Below, one piece after another: positions 1-13,678 of a DNA stretch of 64,000 nucleotides. Positions within the stretch are counted from its first letter, which is position 1; each line of letters opens with the position of its first letter. Below the pieces are notes generated by a model. It was not told where the DNA came from, ran no database searches, and was given only the letters and a program-made list of their open reading frames with translations. The translations under genes were made by a program, and so were the position numbers. The DNA is taken from the NCBI GenBank assembly GCA_945861385.1, contig CAMAUI010000002.1, positions 1 through 64,000 on the forward strand, given 5' to 3'. This stretch comes from Prosthecobacter debontii. Lineage in GTDB: Bacteria; Verrucomicrobiota; Verrucomicrobiia; Chthoniobacterales; Chthoniobacteraceae.

Positions 1-822
1 CGGAATCTCACGTGCAGCGGCGCGCGCCTGCTCGCGGTGACGGACAACCTCAACTTTGCCAACCCGCACAATCCCGAGCTGTTCTGGCAGCTCCGCGAGA
101 GCGTCGAGGGACTCGCCGAGGGCTGCCGCGAATTCGGCACGCCGGTCACGGGCGGCAACGTGTCGCTCTACAACCAATCGCCCGCCGGCCCGATCGATCC
201 CACGCCGACCGTCGGCATGGTCGGCATCATTGACGACGCGAAGCACATCACCACGCAGGCGTTCAAGTCCGCGGGCGACGTGATCATCCTGGCCGGCCCC
301 GTGCTCGATCCCGCCGCGGGCGACCTCTCACTCGGCGCGTCGCATTACATGAAAGTCGTGCACGGCCAGAAAGCCGGCCGCACGCCGCGGCTGTCGTTCG
401 ATCTGGAAAAGCGCGTGCAAGCTGCGGTGCTCGGCCTTATCCGCGAAGGCCTCGTGAAAAGCGCGCATGATTGCAGCGAAGGCGGCCTCGCCGTCGCCAT
501 CGCCGAAAGCTGCATCGGCGGAAAACTCGGCGCGACCATCGAACTCCCCAGCGGCCCCGCGCTCGACAAATATCCCGCCCACGCCGCCCGCGCCGCGCTG
601 CTCTTCGGCGAAAGCCAGAGCCGCATCATCCTAGGCATCGCCCCCGAAAACGCCGCCCGCGTCCTCGCCGCCCTCGCAACCGCAAAGATCCCGCACAGCC
701 GCCTCGGCACCGTCGGCGGCGACAAGCTGAGCATCACCGCCCACGGCGTGACGCTCGCCGCGACGCTCGCGGAAGTGAGCGATCCATTCGAGCACAGCAT
801 CGAGCGGGCGATGGCTTCATAA
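1..822 (+). CDS. purL: Phosphoribosylformylglycinamidine synthase II (PurL), C-terminal part; 5' end lies outside window
   Basis: Open from base 1: [31 protein letters not shown]...GGNVSLYN...HDCSEGGLAVAIAE; typical PurL C-terminal motifs; stop at 820-822. Confidence 0.93.
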   Translation, partial: RNLTCSGARLLAVTDNLNFANPHNPELFWQLRESVEGLAEGCREFGTPVTGGNVSLYNQSPAGPIDPTPTVGMVGIIDDAKHITTQAFKSAGDVIILAGPVLDPAAGDLSLGASHYMKVVHGQKAGRTPRLSFDLEKRVQAAVLGLIREGLVKSAHDCSEGGLAVAIAESCIGGKLGATIELPSGPALDKYPAHAARAALLFGESQSRIILGIAPENAARVLAALATAKIPHSRLGTVGGDKLSITAHGVTLAATLAEVSDPFEHSIERAMAS

Positions 823-836
823 CGCACCCACGGATT

Positions 837-3467
837 ATGCGCTTCGAGGAACAGGTCGGGATCAAACTCCGGGACACATTCCCGTTCGCCGTCCTTTCCA
901 ACATTCCTCTCTATCGTCCTGACGTGCATGAGGAGCGTCTCGCTGGATACGAGATCGATCATCTATTGCACGCCAGTTCCCCGTTGGTGGATCGTGTATT
1001 CATCATTGAATGCAAAGAGCCTCCCATATTCGGTTCAGCGAGAGACGAGCAACCGCGTCCCGGTGGTCCGTGGAATATCGAGCGACCTGAGGGATGGCGA
1101 AATACCAAGCGCCAAGTCGAGAATCATGCACGGGCGCTGATGAGCTATCTTCGTGGCATCTCTCGCGATCTGAGAATCGAGGCATGGGTGGTTTCTCGCG
1201 ACTACATCGGGCCGAATCTCGAATACCAGAAAGGGCGAATCCGTTTTCGTCTGATTTCCGGGCTGCGACTTAATGAAGAACTCCGAGCGCTTACTCAGGC
1301 GGAGCGAATTGTGCGAGCCGGACAAAGTGCGCTGCTTGGGGCACTGCGTCGCGGGCTGCCGCTTTCGGAAGTGGGGCATCCCGAACTCGGCAACGCTCTC
1401 GGCTACGTGGCTCGGTGTCGGAATGCGATTGATGTGGAGTTGTTCCGTTCCTTTGAGCCCACGACGGGATGGTGGGCTATCAATGGCTCTGCGGGCATGG
1501 GCAAGAGTGTGCTGCTCGCCTACTCCTTGTTCGTTTTCGCATCGGACAAACGCGTCGAGCCGAATCCGGATGGAGCGGAATCTTCGTGGAGTCTCACCCC
1601 ATTTGAAGCCCGTGCTGTCGAACTCGGGCTGCCGACGCTCGCCAATCGCTCAATCTTCGCGATGGCGAGAAAGGAAAAGCAGGTTCGTGGGCTGGAAGAA
1701 CTCTGGTCTCGGTTTGTCGCGGAGTATTCCAAACTCGAAAGCTCTTTGAACGTGCGCTTCAACCGACCTGTCTTTCGCCGATGGACTGGCGAAATCCCGC
1801 CGGAGTGCAACGTGCTGGTGATTGATGAGGCACACGACATCCCGCCGGAACACCATGCGAAAATCGTGCAATGGTTGAGGGCCGGAGAGCAACAGACGGA
1901 CGAACTGCGCCGCTATCTCGCAATCGCGTGTGATCGCCATCAACTACTCCGGCTCGTAGGAACCGACGCGCACCTCATTCGCGGCATCAGTTTCAGCGGC
2001 CACACGCGCAAACTGCGTAGGAATTACCGCAATCCGTTTCCGGTGTATGCGGGAAGTCTTGCGCTGATGTTTCGCTGGTTTGCCCGTAGTGGGCCAAAGA
2101 TCATCCCCACTCTTGAGCAGCTACGAGACGAGTTCGGTTTCGAGGTTGGCGAGCGCGGCGCACGCCGCGATGAAAGAACCTCGCTGGGAATCTGGAACGA
2201 CTCGCACCCTGGCAACTACTGGTCGTTCACGGTGTCGAAAGCTTCCTCTTGCGACGAAATCTTTTCCCAACTCGCGAACGAAGGGTTCGGAAAGAACGAT
2301 GTGCTTTGGGTGCGGTTCAGTGCGGAGGATGACGCTTTTGACTACGAGAAACTTGGGCGATTCACGTATCACAACTGCTTCAGCAAGGAATCCGCAGAAC
2401 TGGTGGACAAGTATATCAAGGGACAGGAATTCCCCGTCGTCATCATCGAAGGATTCCCGCGTGACGTGGAAACGGAAGACTGGAATCCCGCTGAGGAAAA
2501 CGAGGCGGAAAGGCAGATGTGGAAAGCGAGACGGGAACTCTACCTCTGCTGTAGTCGCTCGACGTGTTTTCTCTATTTCATAGAAGCGCGAACGGACGAT
2601 GCGAGAAGCCAAGGGCCTGCCGAAGAAGTCGCGGAATTGGTGCGGCAACTGTCCCACCCGCAGAATCACGATGCAGTTACACGCAGAGTGTGGACGCTCA
2701 GCTTTCAGTCCACTGGAGTTGTCCGCGCCGTTCCGACTTTTTCTGACGAAGTTGAGCCGCAGGCCGAATTGCCGCCCAACTTGAATTCGGTTTCAATGTG
2801 CCGTCCCGTGACGGCGAAGGCCCTCGCTACCACTCTCGGATTGCAGCCAAGTGTGCTCATTGAGCCGCTGTCCAACCTTGGATTCACGCTCAGAACCGTG
2901 AGGGACGTTGTTCCTGATTCGACAGCCAAGGAGTTGGCACTCAAGTTTGGCGCGATTCTCGAAATCACAGACGGCGAATCTGGACCGGGTGACGGGATTC
3001 CTCCGAAACCCGCCGGCGGAGTGCCAACCTCCCATCAACCCGACAGCCCCGCGAGTGGCGGTATTGCGCGCCAACCTGAATCCCCGACTCCGCCAACTCA
3101 ACCGCGCGAAGGAGCCAACGAGTTTGAAACGGCACTGATTCAGTTCGTGAAGTCTCGGGAATTCAAACGGCACAATGCGAAAGTTGATCGTTACCGTGCC
3201 CTCCTCGCATGGTTGCTGGCACGCAAGTCCGAGTTGCGCGAAGGCTTGCTTCGGTATGACCGTGGAAGAAACCGGAAATACTTCGCGACCTCGAAGGAGG
3301 AAATTGATCGTCACGCGAATTCAGCGAACGCACAGCCAATCGCAACAACCGGCCTTTGGGCGCTGACGACAACTTCCACTGACTTAAAGCTCAGCGTTCT
3401 CAACGACGTGATGCACGGCATCGGCATTTCACTGCCCGCACGGCAGGAAGTTCTTCGTCAGTTTTGA
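837..3467 (+). CDS. Putative PD-(D/E)XK nuclease - SF1-like helicase/ATPase with IF2_N-like segment and C-terminal SeqA-like DNA-binding domain
   Basis: ATG at 837, 14 nt after purL stop (upstream part of the 471..3467 ORF is out-of-frame purL). N-term E..YEIDHLL..FIIECKE..QVENHA; Walker A NGSAGMGKS; Walker B VLVIDEAHD; LRRNYRNPFPVY; ARRELYLCCSRS; C-term GRNRKYFA-x23-LWALTTTST aligns to SeqA GRTRVYFA...YWVITNTNT. Confidence 0.85.
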   Translation: MRFEEQVGIKLRDTFPFAVLSNIPLYRPDVHEERLAGYEIDHLLHASSPLVDRVFIIECKEPPIFGSARDEQPRPGGPWNIERPEGWRNTKRQVENHARALMSYLRGISRDLRIEAWVVSRDYIGPNLEYQKGRIRFRLISGLRLNEELRALTQAERIVRAGQSALLGALRRGLPLSEVGHPELGNALGYVARCRNAIDVELFRSFEPTTGWWAINGSAGMGKSVLLAYSLFVFASDKRVEPNPDGAESSWSLTPFEARAVELGLPTLANRSIFAMARKEKQVRGLEELWSRFVAEYSKLESSLNVRFNRPVFRRWTGEIPPECNVLVIDEAHDIPPEHHAKIVQWLRAGEQQTDELRRYLAIACDRHQLLRLVGTDAHLIRGISFSGHTRKLRRNYRNPFPVYAGSLALMFRWFARSGPKIIPTLEQLRDEFGFEVGERGARRDERTSLGIWNDSHPGNYWSFTVSKASSCDEIFSQLANEGFGKNDVLWVRFSAEDDAFDYEKLGRFTYHNCFSKESAELVDKYIKGQEFPVVIIEGFPRDVETEDWNPAEENEAERQMWKARRELYLCCSRSTCFLYFIEARTDDARSQGPAEEVAELVRQLSHPQNHDAVTRRVWTLSFQSTGVVRAVPTFSDEVEPQAELPPNLNSVSMCRPVTAKALATTLGLQPSVLIEPLSNLGFTLRTVRDVVPDSTAKELALKFGAILEITDGESGPGDGIPPKPAGGVPTSHQPDSPASGGIARQPESPTPPTQPREGANEFETALIQFVKSREFKRHNAKVDRYRALLAWLLARKSELREGLLRYDRGRNRKYFATSKEEIDRHANSANAQPIATTGLWALTTTSTDLKLSVLNDVMHGIGISLPARQEVLRQF

Positions 3468-3535
3468 AAGCGCGGATCGTGTTGGCACGCGACGGTCGCG
3501 TTGACGCCGCGCGGCGGAGCGTGCATCGTGCGGGC

Positions 3536-3787
3536 ATGAGCACGCTCGCGGAAATTGAGAAGGCCATTGCCACGCTGCCGACGCCGGAGCAGCGGGAGTT
3601 GTATCGGCATTTGGATGCGCGCTTTCGCGGCAGCGCGGTGTCGGCAGAGGATCGCCCGACGATTCGGCAGCGGAGCGCGCGCGATTGGGCGCGGCAGGCG
3701 AAGGGGAGTGTGCGGCTTGCGCCCGGCGAATCGGTGGACGATGCGCGGATGGCGCATTACGCGGCGAAGTATGATGTGAAGCCGTAA
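3536..3787 (+). CDS. Putative antitoxin of PIN-type TA module
   Basis: Small ORF (MSTLAEIEKAIATLPTPEQRELYRHLDARF...) immediately upstream of a PIN-domain ORF. Confidence 0.65.
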   Translation: MSTLAEIEKAIATLPTPEQRELYRHLDARFRGSAVSAEDRPTIRQRSARDWARQAKGSVRLAPGESVDDARMAHYAAKYDVKP

Positions 3788-3793
3788 GCTGCG

Positions 3794-4225
3794 ATGCGGA
3801 TTCTGCTCGATACGAACATCCTGCTGGATGTGCTGCTGAATCGTCCGGGCTTGGCGGATGAGAGCGATGCGGCGATTGCGAGGTGCGAGGAATTGGGCGC
3901 GGAGTTGTTCGTCGCGTGGCACGGACTGGCGACCGCGTATTACCTGCTCAGGCGCGGACGGACAGAGGCGGAGGCTCTCGCCGAAGTGGATCGAATCCTC
4001 GCTTGGGCGCATGTGGCCACGGCGGGCGATGCTGAGGCTCGCGATGCGCGCGCGATGGGACTGCCGGATTTTGAGGATGCCTTGCAGGTCGCATCCGCGA
4101 GCGCGTGTGGTGCAGACTGGATCATGACGCGAAACGAGGACGACTTTCGCAATAGTCTGGTTCCGGTGATCAACCCCGCTGATTTTCTCACACGTTTCCC
4201 GTTGCCTGCCGTAGAAGGCGCGTAA
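3794..4225 (+). CDS. PIN domain-containing protein (VapC-like toxin)
   Basis: MRILLDTNILLDVLLNRPG...PDFEDALQVASASACGADWIMTRNEDDF; PIN acidic residues in order. Confidence 0.85.
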   Translation: MRILLDTNILLDVLLNRPGLADESDAAIARCEELGAELFVAWHGLATAYYLLRRGRTEAEALAEVDRILAWAHVATAGDAEARDARAMGLPDFEDALQVASASACGADWIMTRNEDDFRNSLVPVINPADFLTRFPLPAVEGA

Positions 4226-4286
4226 GCACGGGGCGATGGCGCAAAACCCGCTCGCCACATCGCAATCGCCGGATAGACTTCCGCGC

Positions 4287-4547
4287 ATGAGCATCACGAT
4301 TGAACTGCCGCCGGATCTCGATGAGCGCGTTCGTATGATCCCCGATCTCGACAAGCGGATCATCCAATTCCTGCGGACGCAGACCGACCTCGAAGAAAGG
4401 CGCAACCGTCAATACAGCCCCGAGGCGAGGGCGGCTGCCGAGCGCGCGCTCGCGGAAGCCGAGCGATTGCGCGCCGCGGGCATGACCCGCGAGCAGGCGT
4501 TCGAGCAATTGCGCAGCGCGCACGACGAAGTTTCCAAGCACCTGTAA
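4287..4547 (+). CDS. Putative antitoxin of second PIN-type TA module
   Basis: MSITIELPPDLDERVRMIPDLDKRIIQFLRTQTDLEERR...; followed 3 nt later by PIN ORF. Confidence 0.65.
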   Translation: MSITIELPPDLDERVRMIPDLDKRIIQFLRTQTDLEERRNRQYSPEARAAAERALAEAERLRAAGMTREQAFEQLRSAHDEVSKHL

Positions 4548-4550
4548 CCG

Positions 4551-4970
4551 GTGGCCACTCGCGCGGTTCTCGACACGAATGTGGTGCTCGCCGCGCATCA
4601 TTCGCGCAATCCGGCCAGCCCCGGTGTCGAAATCCTGGATCGTTGGGAGCGTGGCGAGTTCGTCCTGCTCTACACTGCCGACGTCATCACCGAGTATGCG
4701 GAAAAGCTGATCGAAGCTGGCGCTCCGCAAACCGCGACAGACCGCTTCCTGTCGGCCATCGCATTGAACGGCACTTTCGTCCTGATCGAATTCTTCCACT
4801 TCCGCCACTATCCCGAGGACACCGACGACATCGCCTTTCTCCTCTGCGCACTGAACGGAGACGCCACGCACCTCGTCACCTACGACCCGCACCTGCACGT
4901 CCTCCAGCCGCACTACGCGCTCGCCATCTGCGAGCCGCTCCGCTTCCTCGCTGACTTGCGTTCAGCGTGA
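4551..4970 (+). CDS. PIN family putative toxin component
   Basis: GTG start; ATRAVLDTNVVLAAHHSRNPASPGVEILDRWERGEFVLLYTADVITEYAEKL...DDIAFLLCALNGDATHLVTYDPHL. Confidence 0.83.
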   Translation: MATRAVLDTNVVLAAHHSRNPASPGVEILDRWERGEFVLLYTADVITEYAEKLIEAGAPQTATDRFLSAIALNGTFVLIEFFHFRHYPEDTDDIAFLLCALNGDATHLVTYDPHLHVLQPHYALAICEPLRFLADLRSA

Positions 4971-5081
4971 TGCTGCGGGGGAAAAGTTCGTCTTTTGCCC
5001 GGCGAAGAGATCATCGGTGGAGTCGAGCACTTCGATGCTCTTTATGGCGTCGCTTTTCGCGATCCGGCCCGTCCGTTCGAT

Positions 5082-5534
5082 TCACAGTGGAACAAGCAGC
5101 CCTTCGCTCTTGGCAAGCTCGCGCTGTTTGCCGTCGAATGTGAGGAATTCGGTGGCTGCGAACTGCTGTGCGGTGGCGACGTGGAGGATGTCGAACGCGC
5201 GATAGCCGGAGTCCATTCCGTGCGCGGCGGCGAGGCGTTCGGAGGTCGCGAGCACTGACGGCCAGTCGTAGGCAACGAGCACGAGGCTGCCGTCGGCGAT
5301 GTCGGATTCAAGGTTGGCGAATGCAGAGGCGGCGTCCTCGCGCGTGACCACATCGGGCGCACCATGCTCGGCGCGATAGACGGCCAAACGAACGGCCAGA
5401 CGAAATTCGTAGAGGACGAGATCCGTGACGTGCAACGGCTCCTGCATCGCGGCAAAGTGTGCGGCGGCGCGGGGCGAGTGAATCTGCCTGACGTAAAGGC
5501 TGACGAGAAAGCTCGTATCCGGATACGCGATCAT
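5082..5534 (-). CDS. PIN domain-containing protein (VapC-like toxin)
   Basis: MIAYPDTSFLVSLYVRQIHSPRAAAHFAAMQEPLHVTDLVLYEFR...GYRAFDILHVATAQQFAATEFLTFDGKQRELAKSEGL. Confidence 0.85.
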   Translation of the reverse strand: MIAYPDTSFLVSLYVRQIHSPRAAAHFAAMQEPLHVTDLVLYEFRLAVRLAVYRAEHGAPDVVTREDAASAFANLESDIADGSLVLVAYDWPSVLATSERLAAAHGMDSGYRAFDILHVATAQQFAATEFLTFDGKQRELAKSEGLLVPL

Positions 5535-5788
5535 TCGCGTGAGCGAATGCCGTCAATGATCTCCGCAGCGCCCTTGGCGGACATGCACCGCTCACCGTAT
5601 TGCGCGTTGAGCCTCGCCATGATGTCAGGCTTCTTCGCCGGGCCTTTCGTCGGGGCTGGCATCTGCGCGGGGGAGACACGCGCGACGACGCGGCCCCCGC
5701 GACTGAGGGCCACTTCCTCACCCGCTTCGACGCAGCCGAGGTAGTCGGCGACGTGGGCGGTGAAATCTTCGACGGTGGCAGTCTTCAC
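5531..5788 (-). CDS. Phd/YefM-like antitoxin
   Basis: VKTATVEDFTAHVADYLGCVEAGEEVALSRGGRVVARVSP; overlaps the downstream toxin start. Confidence 0.75.
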   Translation of the reverse strand: MKTATVEDFTAHVADYLGCVEAGEEVALSRGGRVVARVSPAQMPAPTKGPAKKPDIMARLNAQYGERCMSAKGAAEIIDGIRSRE

Positions 5789-5913
5789 AGGGAAGAATCT
5801 AGGAGTCGTCGAGCTTTGCGGCAAGCAGTGAGTTTGCGAACGAGTGTCACTTTTCTCCGCCAAGAGAATCGCGCCCCGCGGGAGCAGCATCCATTTTCCA
5901 CCGGAAGCAAAAG

Positions 5914-6588
5914 CGCATCGCCATCGCCGAGGCCGCGCGGAATCTCACGTGCAGCGGCGCGCGCCTGCTCGCGGTGACGGACAACCTCAACTTTGCCAAC
6001 CCGCATAATCCCGAGCTGTTCTGGCAACTCCGCGAGAGCGTCGAGGGACTCGCCGAGGGCTGCCGCGAATTCGGCACGCCGGTCACGGGCGGCAACGTGT
6101 CGCTCTACAACCAAAGCCCCGCCGGTCCGATCGATCCCACGCCGACCGTCGGCATGGTCGGTCTCATTGACGACGCGAAGCACATCACCACGCAGGCGTT
6201 CAAGTCCGCGGGCGACGTCATCATCCTCGCCGGCCCGGTGTTCGATGTGGCTGCGACGCCCTCGTCGCCGTCCGTTGCCGCGGCGCCCTCGCCGCGGGGC
6301 GACGCCAGCGACGAGGCGTCGCTGCAACGGCCGGCGGCGGGGGCGCCGCAGCCACAGGTCGCCGGGGCGCCGCAGCCACGGTGCTGCGACCTCTCACTCG
6401 GCGCGTCGCACTACATGAAAGTCGTGCATGGCCAGCAGGCCGGACGCACGCCGCGCCTGTCGTTCGATTTGGAAAAGCGCGTGCAAGCCGCAGTCCTCGG
6501 CCTCACCGCCCACGGCGCGACGCTCGCAGCGACGCTCGCGGAAGTGAGCGACCCCTTCGAGCACAGCATTGAGCGGGCGATGGCGTAA
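5914..6588 (+). pseudogene. purL: Second, degenerate partial copy of purL 3' region (in-frame insertion plus in-frame deletion)
   Basis: [39 protein letters not shown]... nearly identical to copy at 1-822; carries an extra ~134 bp GC-rich element at ~6247-6380 and lacks ~100 codons between VLGL and TAHG. Confidence 0.85.
6247..6380. repeat. Palindromic GC-rich dispersed element inserted in purL copy 2
   Basis: Starts gtggctgcgacgccctcgtcgccg and ends with approximate inverse cggcggcgggggcgccgcagccac...cgccgcagccac; absent from purL copy 1; related sequence at 53928-53980. Confidence 0.7.
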
Positions 6589-9182: not shown

Positions 9183-11618
9183 ATGAAAAATCTCGCCCTT
9201 TGCCTCCTCCTGCTCATCTCACCTTCCGCCCTTCGTGCCGCTGCGGCAGCAAGGCCGAACATCCTCTACATCCTCGCCGACGACCTCGGCTATGGCGATG
9301 TGCAGGCCCTGAATCCGGAGCGCGGAAAAATCAAGACGCCGCATCTCGACAAGCTTGCGGCACAGGGCATGGCCTTCACTGACGCGCACAGCGGTTCCTC
9401 CGTCTGCACTCCCACACGCTATGGTCTGCTCACCGGGCGCTACGCGTGGCGCACGCGGCTGCAAAACGGGGTGCTCGACGGCGCCTCGAAACCGCTGATC
9501 GCAGCCGACCGGCTGACGGTCGCGGCACTGCTGAAACAGCACGGCTATTTCACCGCCGCCGTCGGAAAGTGGCATCTCGGCATGAACCTGCCCCCCGCCC
9601 AAAAGCTCGCCGAGCCGATCACCGAGGGGCCGCTCGCCCGCGGGTTCGATTACTTTTTTGGCATCAGCGCGTCGCTGGACATGCCGCCCTTCGCATTCAT
9701 CGAGAATGACCGCTACACGGAGGCCCCGACCGCGCAAAAACAATGGCTGCGGAAAGGGGCCGCCGCTCCAGGCTTCGAGGCGGTGGACGTGCTGCCCGCG
9801 CTCTCGCGCAAGACTGTCGAGATCATCGGCCAGCGCGCCGCGGATGCCAGGGCGGGCAAGCCGTTTTTCATCTACCTGCCGCTGACCTCGCCGCACACGC
9901 CCATCCTGCCCACCTCCGAGTGGCAGGGAAAGAGCGGGCTCGGCGCTTACGGGGACTTCGTGATGCAGACCGATGCCGCGGTCGGTGAGATCTTCGGCGC
10001 GCTGGAAAAAACCGGCCTCGCCGAAAGCACACTCGTCATTTTCACCAGCGACAACGGCTGCTCCCCCGCCGCCGGCACTGGCAATCTGGAGAAGCAGGGC
10101 CACTTCGCCAGCGGGCAGTTTCGCGGCTTCAAGGCCGACATCTGGGAGGGCGGCCATCGCGTGCCCTTCCTCGTGCGCTGGCCGGGGAAAGTGAAAGCCG
10201 GCTCGCAAAACACGCGGCTGATCTGCCACACCGACCTCATGGCGACATGCGCGGATGTCGTCGGCGCGAAACTTCCCGACAACGCCGGCGAGGACAGCGT
10301 GAGCTTCCTCCCCGCCCTGCTCGGCACTGACAAGCCCGCGCCGCGCGATGCCGTCGTACATCACAGCATCCAGGGGAAATTCGCCATCCGCCGCGGCCAG
10401 TGGAAGCTCGCGCTGTGCGCCGGCAGCGGCGGCTGGAGCAAGGGCGGTGGCCCGGAGTCGCCACAGCTCTACGACTTCGACGCAGACCCCGGCGAAACGA
10501 AAAATCTGGCCGCTGAAAAGCCCGGCATCGTCGCCGAACTCACGGCCCTGATGGAGAAATTTGTCACCGAAGGCCGCAGCACCCCAGGCCCGAAACAGGC
10601 GAACGATGTGCCCGTGGTTTTTCCCGGCGCACGCCCGCAGCCGGGGAAAGCGCCCCCTGCTGCCGCGGACAAGACTGCTTCGCCCGCCCAAGTCACCGGG
10701 CCATTGCCCGCGCCCGCCGCCGCCGAGACTTCCGGAGGCTGGCGGAAGTTCGCTGGCAATCCAGTGATGGGTGGAAAATACGGGACATGCTTCGACATCT
10801 CGGTTTTGCGCGAGGGCGACACCTGGCGGATGTATCTTTCCTGGCGGCCGAAAAAATCGCTCGCGATGGTCGAGAGCAAGGATGGCATCCATTGGAGCGA
10901 GCCGCCGCGGATCGTGTTTGGCCCGCGCGCGGAGACGGGCTGGGAGGATGAAATCAACCGGCCCTGCGTGCTGAAGAAGGGCGACACTTATCATCTGTGG
11001 TACACCGGCCAGACCAAAACCCGATCGTGGATCGGCTACGCGACCAGCATGGACGGCGTGAATTGGAAACGCATGAGCGACAAGCCGGTGCTGACCGCCG
11101 ATCAGCCGTGGGAGTTGAACCTCGCCGTGATGTGCCCGTCGGTTCTCTGGGACGAGGCGACCAGGCTTTTCCGCATGTGGTACTCCGGCGGCGAACAGGG
11201 TGAACCGAATGCGATCGGCTACGCCACCAGCCCGGACGGGCTTGTCTGGACAAAGCACGCGGCCAATCCTGTCTTCACCGCGGAGCCGAAAAGTCCGTGG
11301 GAAAAGCACAAGGTCACCGGATGCCAGGTCGAGAAAGTCGGTGACTGGCACGTGATGTTTTACATCGGCTTTCAGGATGAAGCGACGGCGCGAATCTGCC
11401 TGGCGCGCAGCAAGGACGGCATCACCAACTGGCAGCGACATCCCGCAAACCCGGTCATCTCCCCCGGTAAAAACAAATGGGACCACCTCGCATGCTACAA
11501 GCCTTATGCAATTTTTGACGGCGGGAAATGGCTGCTCTGGTACAACGGCCGCCAGGACAGCCTGGAACAAATCGGTGTTGCGCTCCACGAAGGAAAGGAT
11601 TTGGGATTTGAGAAATGA
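9183..11618 (+). CDS. Sulfatase fused to C-terminal GH43/GH117/GH130-like beta-propeller domain
   Basis: Signal peptide; RPNILYILADDLGYGDV; CTPTRYGLLTGRYAWR sulfatase signature; C-terminal IGYATSMDGVNW / IGYATSPDGLVW propeller repeats. Confidence 0.88.
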   Translation: MKNLALCLLLLISPSALRAAAAARPNILYILADDLGYGDVQALNPERGKIKTPHLDKLAAQGMAFTDAHSGSSVCTPTRYGLLTGRYAWRTRLQNGVLDGASKPLIAADRLTVAALLKQHGYFTAAVGKWHLGMNLPPAQKLAEPITEGPLARGFDYFFGISASLDMPPFAFIENDRYTEAPTAQKQWLRKGAAAPGFEAVDVLPALSRKTVEIIGQRAADARAGKPFFIYLPLTSPHTPILPTSEWQGKSGLGAYGDFVMQTDAAVGEIFGALEKTGLAESTLVIFTSDNGCSPAAGTGNLEKQGHFASGQFRGFKADIWEGGHRVPFLVRWPGKVKAGSQNTRLICHTDLMATCADVVGAKLPDNAGEDSVSFLPALLGTDKPAPRDAVVHHSIQGKFAIRRGQWKLALCAGSGGWSKGGGPESPQLYDFDADPGETKNLAAEKPGIVAELTALMEKFVTEGRSTPGPKQANDVPVVFPGARPQPGKAPPAAADKTASPAQVTGPLPAPAAAETSGGWRKFAGNPVMGGKYGTCFDISVLREGDTWRMYLSWRPKKSLAMVESKDGIHWSEPPRIVFGPRAETGWEDEINRPCVLKKGDTYHLWYTGQTKTRSWIGYATSMDGVNWKRMSDKPVLTADQPWELNLAVMCPSVLWDEATRLFRMWYSGGEQGEPNAIGYATSPDGLVWTKHAANPVFTAEPKSPWEKHKVTGCQVEKVGDWHVMFYIGFQDEATARICLARSKDGITNWQRHPANPVISPGKNKWDHLACYKPYAIFDGGKWLLWYNGRQDSLEQIGVALHEGKDLGFEK

Positions 11619-13678
11619 AACCGCCGATCATGAAACCACTCGTCACCATCCTGCTCTCCGCGCTCTCACTCGCCGCGGACGGCGCGGAGCCGGATGCACT
11701 CAAGGACAAAACCCTCGTCGTCTGGGTCGCGCCAGCCAACCTGACCCAGCGCGGCGGAAGCGCACTTACCATCGAGGACGGACGTGATCATTTCGATGCC
11801 GTCGTGTTTGGTGAGGTGACGCCCGCAAAATGGATGGCCGGCAGCGATCATTGGCACCGCTCGCAGAAGAACCAGGGGGACTTCCCTGGCGAGGATTCAG
11901 CCCCGGGGACATTTGTGCAGATGGCGATCGTTTACTCGGGCCGACAGGTCACCGTTTACCGGAATGGAAAGGTGTATTCGCAACATGCGATCACGGGCGA
12001 TCTCCTGGAGTTCGGACCGGCCAGCACAGTGGGGATCGGGAAACGGCATCGCGCCCAGACCGCCCCTGCGCATTTCGCCGGGGCGATTGATGACGCCCGC
12101 ATTTACGCGCAAGCCCTGTCGGCGGAGCAAATCGCCAGCCTGAAACCGAACGCGGCATCGGAGCCAACACCGTGGGCATGGTGGACTTTCGACGACAAGA
12201 AAGCGGAGGATCAGACTGCACGCTTCCCGATCACCCAGCTTACGGGCGGCGCAAAAGTGGAGGACGGCAAACTGGTGCTGGACGGAGTTCGCGCGGAGTT
12301 CCTCGCCAAGACCGGCAAGGAGGTTCCGTTCGCCTACGAAAAGCCTTCGCGCCCGGCCAGTCCGCCGGCGAATTGGCTGACCTATCACCTCGCACATCCC
12401 GGCCCCGGCAACGGGATGCCGGGCGATCCCAATTGCGCCTTCTTTTGGAAGGGACGCTATCACCTTCACTACATCTACGCCCACCGCGACGGGTTCTCCT
12501 TCGCACATGTTTCCAGCACCGACATGTTGCATTGGAAGTGGCACCCGACCACGCTCACCCCGCCGAAGACCAGACACGGGATGTTCAGCGGCACCGGTTT
12601 TTTCACGAAGGAAGGCCGGCCTGCGATCATCTACCACGGACAAGGATCGGGGCGGAATCAGATCGCCATTGCGGAAGATGACGAGCTGGAGAAATGGAGC
12701 GAGCCGATGGCACTCGAACCGATCATCCGGCCCGGCCAGGACGGGGGCAAAATCGCGAACTGGGATCCGGATGCGTGGATGGATGGCGGCAATTACTACG
12801 CGCTCTCCGGCGGTTCACCCGGCAGCGGAAAGCCCCCCACCCTCTTCAAGTCCGCCGATCTCAAGAGCTGGGATTACCTCGGCCTCTTCCTCACCACCGA
12901 CATGCCGGATGTGAAGAAAAACGAGGACATCTCCTGTCCCAATTTTTTCAAGATCGGTAAAAAGGACATGCTCCTCTGCATCAGCCACACCCTTGGCTGC
13001 CGCTACTATCTCGGAGAATGGAAGGGTGAGAAATTCACGCCCGACTTTCATGCGCGCATGAACTGGAAGGGCTGGGATTTCTTCGCGCCGGAGAGCGTGC
13101 TGACCCCCGACGGCCGCCGAGTGATGTGGGCGTGGTGCAATCTCGGCTTTCCTCAGACCGGCATCCAGTCGCTGCCGCGCGAACTGAGCCTGCCGGAGGA
13201 CGGCGTGCTCCGCATCAAACCCCTGCGCGAACTCGAGACGCTCCGGCACGGTGAAAAGAGCGAAGCCGGCTTTTCCGTGAAGGCTGATTCTCCGGCGATG
13301 CTCAAGGACATTGCCGGGGACGACATTGAATTGAAGATTTCCATCCAGCCGGGCACCGCAGCGCAGTTTGGTGTCGAGCTTTACTGCGACAAGGACGGCA
13401 GGAGCGGCTTCCCGATCACGGTGGATCGCGGCAGCAAGACCCTGAGCCTTGGCGCCACAAAGGCTCCCTTCGAATTGAAAGCCGGGGAAAACCTCGAACT
13501 GCGCGTCTTCCTCGACAAAAACATGATCGAAGTTTTCGCCAACGAACGGCAGGCTGTCGTCGCCTCCCACAAGTATGCGGCCGGAAATACAGGCATCCGC
13601 CTTTTCAGCAAAGGCGGTGATGTCATGGTGAAAGATATTAAAAGCTGGAAGATGAAATCCACCTACGCGGAGCAATGA
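11615..13678 (+). CDS. GH32-family glycoside hydrolase with N-terminal LamG-like domain
   Basis: ATGA overlap with sulfatase; LAHPGPGNGMPGDPNCAFFWKGRYHLHYIY; MLHWKWHPTTLTP; NWDPDAW; NEDISCPNFFKIG; C-terminal GH32C-like MIEVFANERQAVVASHKY. Confidence 0.87.
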   Translation: MKPPIMKPLVTILLSALSLAADGAEPDALKDKTLVVWVAPANLTQRGGSALTIEDGRDHFDAVVFGEVTPAKWMAGSDHWHRSQKNQGDFPGEDSAPGTFVQMAIVYSGRQVTVYRNGKVYSQHAITGDLLEFGPASTVGIGKRHRAQTAPAHFAGAIDDARIYAQALSAEQIASLKPNAASEPTPWAWWTFDDKKAEDQTARFPITQLTGGAKVEDGKLVLDGVRAEFLAKTGKEVPFAYEKPSRPASPPANWLTYHLAHPGPGNGMPGDPNCAFFWKGRYHLHYIYAHRDGFSFAHVSSTDMLHWKWHPTTLTPPKTRHGMFSGTGFFTKEGRPAIIYHGQGSGRNQIAIAEDDELEKWSEPMALEPIIRPGQDGGKIANWDPDAWMDGGNYYALSGGSPGSGKPPTLFKSADLKSWDYLGLFLTTDMPDVKKNEDISCPNFFKIGKKDMLLCISHTLGCRYYLGEWKGEKFTPDFHARMNWKGWDFFAPESVLTPDGRRVMWAWCNLGFPQTGIQSLPRELSLPEDGVLRIKPLRELETLRHGEKSEAGFSVKADSPAMLKDIAGDDIELKISIQPGTAAQFGVELYCDKDGRSGFPITVDRGSKTLSLGATKAPFELKAGENLELRVFLDKNMIEVFANERQAVVASHKYAAGNTGIRLFSKGGDVMVKDIKSWKMKSTYAEQ

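What the first reader, a model, noticed from the sequence alone, without database searches (positions are those of the whole stretch)
837..3467. Nuclease-helicase protein ending in a SeqA-like methyl-GATC-reading domain: candidate methylation-sensing defense effector
Seen in sequence: the last ~115 residues (SREFKRHNAKVDRYRALLAWLLARKSELREGLLRYDRGRNRKYFATSKEEIDRHANSANAQPIATTGLWALTTTSTDLKLSVLNDVMHGIGIS) align without gaps to the E. coli SeqA C-terminal domain as I recall it (SDEYAEQKRAVNRFMLLLSTLYSLDAQAFAEATESLHGRTRVYFAADEQTLLKNGNQTKPKHVPGTPYWVITNTNTGRKCSMIEHIMQSMQFP): 44 residues to YF in both, and 23 residues between YFA and the conserved W in both. The N-terminus has a PD-(D/E)XK-like order E..EID..ECK..QVENH, followed by an SF1-like ATPase (GSAGMGKS, VLVIDEAHD, LRRNYRN, ARRELYLCCSRS). 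Established: SeqA's C-terminal domain binds hemimethylated GATC. Inference: DNA methylation state recruits or gates a nuclease/helicase, e.g. type IV-like restriction or replication surveillance.
Basis: partly seen in the sequence, partly recalled or inferred. Interest (0 to 1): 0.9.

Follow-up and report, generated by a model that had tools for sequence, protein, structure and literature searches.

The report
Nuclease-helicase fused to SeqA-type domain
A horizontally acquired bacterial protein joins a DNA-cutting domain, a helicase motor and a relative of SeqA, the protein E. coli uses to read methylated DNA; it sits where a close relative carries a known anti-phage system, so it is probably a defence enzyme, but the residues that read methyl-GATC in E. 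coli are changed.

Summary
Confirmed: window 837-3467 (+) encodes an 876-aa protein whose last ~110 residues are a true SeqA C-terminal domain (Pfam PF03925 E=1.6e-13; predicted model matches SeqA-DNA crystals, TM 0.92). Upstream are a NERD (PD-(D/E)XK) nuclease domain (just under Pfam's cut-off; catalytic motif conserved in three homologues), an SF1/UvrD-type ATPase with motifs in order, and a weak IF2_N-like domain. The gene looks foreign (GC3 0.62 against 0.72-0.85), starts 14 bp after purL, and fills a cargo hotspot: same-genus G005 lacks it between the same flanks; G008 has a complete type II Zorya there. The only near-full-length homologue found (Verrucomicrobia MAG, 40%) lacks SeqA and lies beside YprA/MZB- and DpdE-type defence helicases. 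The methyl-GATC step is only partly supported: of five SeqA residues contacting GATC, R116/R118 are kept, N150/N152 are T/S, T117 is N, and SeqA_N is absent. The host genome (94% complete) has no Dam-type methylase, so a methyl-DNA-dependent effector could be tolerated. Most likely a defence nuclease-helicase that the SeqA module docks on DNA; gating by adenine methylation is plausible but unproven. One copy known.

The parts
837..3467 (+). CDS, 876 aa: NERD nuclease - SF1/UvrD-like ATPase - IF2_N-like - SeqA C-terminal domain
   Evidence: starts 14 bp after the purL stop
840..1187 (+). NERD / PD-(D/E)XK-like nuclease domain (residues 2-117); candidate catalytic residues E4, D41, E58, K60, Q93
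   Evidence: PF08378 E=3.4e-4, just below cut-off; residues invariant in P0001, P0002 and L058
1464..2561 (+). SF1/UvrD-type ATPase core (about residues 210-575): Walker A GSAGMGKS, Walker B VLVIDEAHD, CDRHQ, LRRNYRN, KGQEFPVV, RRELYLCCSRS
   Evidence: motifs align in order with UvrD-type proteins by hhalign; weak colinear PADLOC GajB and NERD+UvrD hits
2808..2951 (+). IF2_N-like small domain (residues 658-705)
   Evidence: PF04760 E=8.4e-4, below cut-off; this stretch also picks up IF-2 of other Verrucomicrobiota
3141..3431 (+). SeqA C-terminal DNA-binding domain (residues 769-865)
   Evidence: PF03925 E=1.6e-13; fold match to 1lrr, TM 0.92; R, N, R, T, S at the positions of R116, T117, R118, N150, N152
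37..822 (+). 3' part of purL (AIRS / AIRS_C domains); its 3' end is the insertion point
5938..6588 (+). second, truncated and rearranged copy of the purL 3' part
   Evidence: 96% identity over 300 bp, further pieces at 88-93%
3464..5890 (.). PIN-domain genes and their small partners (three PIN toxin-like ORFs), partly shared with G005

Best explanation
The gene is a horizontally acquired, single-protein defence effector. A NERD-type PD-(D/E)XK nuclease is driven or positioned by an SF1/UvrD-type translocase, and a C-terminal SeqA-type domain docks the enzyme on duplex DNA and helps to choose the target. The most natural cue for a SeqA-type domain is adenine methylation of incoming DNA, which the host can tolerate because it has no Dam-type methylase; but it probably does not use the exact E. 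coli hemimethyl-GATC code, because both base-reading asparagines are replaced. Shown: domain homology, conserved motifs, foreign composition, hotspot position, absence of a Dam-type gene. Inferred: nuclease and helicase activity, anti-phage role, DNA docking. Least secure: that methylation is the cue. I put a defence role of any kind at about 0.8; the confidence below is for the whole chain with a methylation cue of altered code.
For: SeqA domain by sequence and fold. NERD motif conserved in three homologues and SF1 motifs in order. Low GC and GC3 throughout, SeqA part included. Same-genus G005 has purL and the PIN array at the same place but no such gene, so both borders are host sequence; G008 has ZorA2 (4e-65), ZorB2 (6e-79) and ZorE (3.5e-45) there, preceded by a copy of the purL 3' end. 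Homologue P0002 (40%) lies directly downstream of a YprA/MZB-type helicase, a DpdE-like SNF2 helicase (E=1e-184) and a Schlafen AlbA_2 protein. No PF02086 (Dam-type) methylase in the host genome. Fusions of 6mA readers to nucleases that act on Dam-methylated DNA are an established kind (PMC11037411).
Against: N150 and N152 are T and S. Only one copy of the fusion is known, and the family without SeqA exists (P0002), so SeqA is not essential to the core. NERD is below Pfam's cut-off and the predicted model of residues 1-716 was too poor to use (pLDDT 40). Zorya occupies the site in one relative only; other relatives carry other cargo there. No activity has been tested.
Confidence: 0.38

Rival explanations
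1. Same defence effector, but the SeqA-type domain is only a methylation-blind DNA-binding module: it adds affinity or a different sequence preference, and self/non-self is decided elsewhere (for example by DNA ends or replication intermediates sensed by the helicase).
For: Both base-reading asparagines are lost while the arginines R116 and R118 are kept; the homologue P0002 has no SeqA; SeqA homologues in Verrucomicrobiota do not track Dam-type genes (4 of 17 with strong PF02086 hits).
Against: SeqA is known as a reader of methylation state, and the domain is kept as an intact fold.
Confidence: 0.33
2. One reading: a strict hemimethylated-GATC (Dam) sensor that recruits or gates the nuclease-helicase, type IV-like or in replication surveillance.
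For: SeqA-C homology; no Dam-type gene in the host, so no self-attack.
Against: N150T, N152S and T117N (residues from PMC6225831); no SeqA_N for oligomerisation on paired GATC sites.
Confidence: 0.12
3. A housekeeping replication or repair factor (a SeqA/MutH-like role at forks).
For: NERD, UvrD-like and SeqA parts all touch replicating DNA; the gene follows purL closely and may be read with it.
Against: Absent from the nine other same-genus genomes and from nearly all of the phylum searched; foreign composition; hotspot position.
Confidence: 0.07
4. Cargo serving a mobile element itself (stability, anti-competitor or transfer function), not host defence.
For: Flanked by PIN toxin-like genes and purL-end repeats.
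Against: No integrase, relaxase or phage gene identified in 823-5970; no match in the phage or plasmid collections or in viral contigs.
Confidence: 0.1

Closest known systems
SeqA (E. coli; PF03925, PDB 1lrr, 1iu3, 3fmt)
   Same: C-terminal domain homologous in sequence and predicted fold; two of the contact arginines kept
   Different: No SeqA_N; N150/N152 replaced by T/S, T117 by N; fused to a nuclease-helicase
6mA-dependent type IV restriction fusions with winged-helix readers (PD-(D/E)XK-wH, PUA-wH-HNH and others; PMC11037411)
   Same: A PD-(D/E)XK-type nuclease joined to a domain related to adenine-methylation readers; a host without a Dam-type gene
   Different: Reader is SeqA-type, not winged helix; carries an SF1 helicase; dependence on 6mA untested. 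That paper's survey of 6mA readers does not include SeqA
NERD + UvrD proteins (PADLOC C3a187) and GajB of Gabija
   Same: NERD-like N-terminus and SF1/UvrD motifs in the same order
   Different: Only weak profile scores; no GajA next to it
YprA-helicase defence systems (Dpd, Druantia, ARMADA, TALON; PMC12458937)
   Same: The homologue P0002 lies next to YprA/MZB-type and DpdE-like helicases; ARMADA II has a GajB-like helicase with an N-terminal nuclease, TALON a NERD nuclease
   Different: The window gene stands alone, with no YprA or SNF2 gene beside it

Membership tests
SeqA C-terminal domain family (PF03925) | Profile score above the curated cut-off | tested here: met
   51.1 bits against 25.5
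SeqA C-terminal domain family (PF03925) | SeqA-C fold | tested here: met
   TM 0.92, rmsd 1.5 A to 1lrr
SeqA protein (GATC hemimethyl reader) | GATC-contact residues R116, T117, R118, N150, N152 | tested here: not met
   R, N, R, T, S; residue list from PMC6225831
SeqA protein (GATC hemimethyl reader) | N-terminal oligomerisation domain SeqA_N | tested here: not met
   no PF17206 hit in P0001 at E<=1; the free-standing homologue L003 does have it
SeqA protein (GATC hemimethyl reader) | Preference for hemimethylated GATC | not testable with these tools
   needs a binding assay
Type IV (modification-dependent) restriction enzyme | Nuclease domain plus modified-base reader | tested here: inconclusive
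   NERD sub-threshold with conserved motif; reader residues changed
Type IV (modification-dependent) restriction enzyme | No conflicting methylase in the host | tested here: inconclusive
   no PF02086 (Dam-type) match, but four PF01555 matches of unknown specificity; genome 94% complete
Type IV (modification-dependent) restriction enzyme | Cuts modified, spares unmodified DNA | not testable with these tools
   needs an enzyme assay
NERD nuclease | PF08378 above cut-off | tested here: not met
   21.5 against 22.1 bits, E=3.4e-4
NERD nuclease | PD-(D/E)XK motif order E..D..ExK..Q | tested here: met
   invariant in P0001, P0002 and L058
SF1/UvrD helicase | Walker A, Walker B, motifs III to VI in order | tested here: met
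   colinear hhalign segments 210-226, 325-399, 528-575; each segment alone scores low
Gabija | GajA OLD-family nuclease next to GajB | tested here: not met
   neighbours are purL and PIN genes

The most novel reading that the evidence does not exclude
A SeqA-type domain has been recruited as the adenine-methylation reader of a nuclease-helicase, giving a type IV-like or replication-state-sensing restriction enzyme with a reader class not before described in defence, and with a recognition code different from hemimethylated GATC.
Probability: 0.35. Interest if true: 0.82.

Novelty: new variant of a known kind. Interest (0 to 1): 0.62.

Why it matters
SeqA is textbook as a replication-timing reader of newly replicated DNA. 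Here its DNA-binding domain is part of a probable defence enzyme. If it senses methylation, the known set of 6mA readers in restriction grows by a new fold, and an enzyme could in principle sense hemimethylated (just-replicated) DNA. The free-standing SeqA homologues in Verrucomicrobiota, which do not track Dam-type genes, make the question of what SeqA reads outside Gammaproteobacteria directly testable.

Tried and rejected
Chance resemblance of the SeqA match: rejected. Assembly artefact: unlikely, since both borders match same-genus sequence, although the contig starts inside purL. Structure of residues 1-716: model too poor (pLDDT 40), not used for a fold search. More copies of the fusion: none in the contigs of 85,462 species with two peptide patterns (one hit, the SeqA-less G501 protein), in four viral-contig scans, in phages and plasmids, or in PF03925 scans of 214 and 390 genomes, where the other hits look like separate SeqA-like ORFs (a few lie in longer open frames that I did not examine in detail). 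These scans are sensitive only to fairly close relatives or cover a sample of genomes, so more copies may exist. Extra family members: a gene remnant (L057) and a contig-end fragment (L058) only. Literature on SeqA-nuclease fusions: none found in the held library. A co-occurrence of SeqA with Dam-type genes in Verrucomicrobiota was looked for and not seen. GATC avoidance: 360 observed against 435 expected in the window, not striking.

Full report
The observation. The window carries an uninterrupted 876-codon gene at 837-3467 on the + strand. Its C-terminal part is a genuine SeqA C-terminal domain: PF03925 E=1.6e-13, twice the curated cut-off in bits; NCBIfam SeqA E=1.3e-14; SeqA chains are the only significant hits in the PDB by sequence and by fold (TM 0.92 to 1lrr, rmsd 1.5 A).

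The rest of the protein. Residues 2-117 match NERD just below the cut-off. In the two other family members found (P0002 from G501, and a contig-end fragment L058) E4, D41, E58, K60 and Q93 are all kept, which is the PD-(D/E)XK order. Residues 210-575 hold Walker A, Walker B, a motif III-like CDRHQ, NYRN, KGQEFPVV and the motif VI-like RRELYLCCSRS, aligned in order with UvrD-type proteins. Residues 658-705 weakly match IF2_N. The structure prediction for this region was not usable.

Setting. The gene starts 14 bp after the stop of purL, has GC 0.566 and GC3 0.62 against GC3 0.72-0.85 in most other genes measured, and its SeqA part has the same composition as the rest, so the fusion probably predates its arrival. 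In G005 purL is followed by other cargo and then by PIN genes 90-93% identical to those in the window, without this gene. In G008 the same site holds ZorA, ZorB and ZorE of type II Zorya, preceded by a copy of the purL 3' end. G001 and G004 carry unrelated genes there. So the site is a cargo hotspot that holds a known type of defence system in at least one relative. P0002 lies next to a YprA/MZB-type helicase, a DpdE-like SNF2 helicase and a Schlafen AlbA_2 protein, and YprA-type systems are defence systems (PMC12458937).

Does it read methyl-GATC? PMC6225831 lists R116, T117, R118, N150 and N152 of SeqA as GATC contacts. The window protein has R, N, R, T, S. The two arginines are kept; both asparagines are gone. 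SeqA_N is absent. In other Verrucomicrobiota I found free-standing SeqA homologues, one with a clear SeqA_N (L003). Positions 150 and 152 vary there too, and only 4 of 17 such genomes have a strong Dam-type PF02086 hit, against 2 of 4 comparison genomes. The host has none but has PF01555-type methylase genes of unknown specificity. The claim of strict GATC reading is therefore not supported, and methylation sensing in general is open. On a small tree the domain groups with L008, L003, L004, L006 and E. coli SeqA rather than with the SeqA-like clade of family f17, with modest support inside that group.

Verdict. A new domain architecture from known parts, found once. The likeliest reading is a defence nuclease-helicase docked on DNA by a SeqA-type module (defence of some kind about 0.8; methylation as the cue, in any code, about 0.5). 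The known systems it most resembles in logic are the 6mA-dependent type IV fusions with winged-helix readers (PMC11037411), whose authors' survey of 6mA readers does not mention SeqA.

Noticed in passing
window 1-822 and 5938-6588: purL 3' part is duplicated (96% over 300 bp); the second copy is rearranged. The contig begins inside the first copy, probably because of this repeat.
   Followed up: partly
window 787-814, 6556-6583; L075 12792-12828; L076 4542-4585: A 28-44 bp repeat of the purL 3' end precedes different cargo genes in several same-genus genomes and may be an attachment-like site; no recombinase was identified.
   Followed up: partly
window 3464-5890; L076; L077: Array of PIN-domain toxin-like genes with repeated flanking DNA, reshuffled between same-genus genomes, like a toxin-antitoxin cassette array.
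   Followed up: no
L003, L006, L008, L029-L041: Free-standing SeqA-like proteins in Verrucomicrobiota with varied residues at positions 150 and 152, not tracking Dam-type methylase genes; one family (f17) forms its own clade with an N-I-D or T-I-D motif.
   Followed up: partly
L075 9738-12714 (-): Complete type II Zorya (ZorA, ZorB, ZorE) downstream of purL in a same-genus genome.
   Followed up: yes
L027 42-7399: YprA/MZB-type helicase part, DpdE-like SNF2 helicase and Schlafen AlbA_2 protein next to the homologue P0002: a possible YprA-type defence system with a NERD-SF1 protein.
   Followed up: partly
window 9186-13675: Sulfatase with a glycoside hydrolase 130/32-like C-terminal part, followed by a GH32 protein with a laminin-G-like domain.
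   Followed up: no
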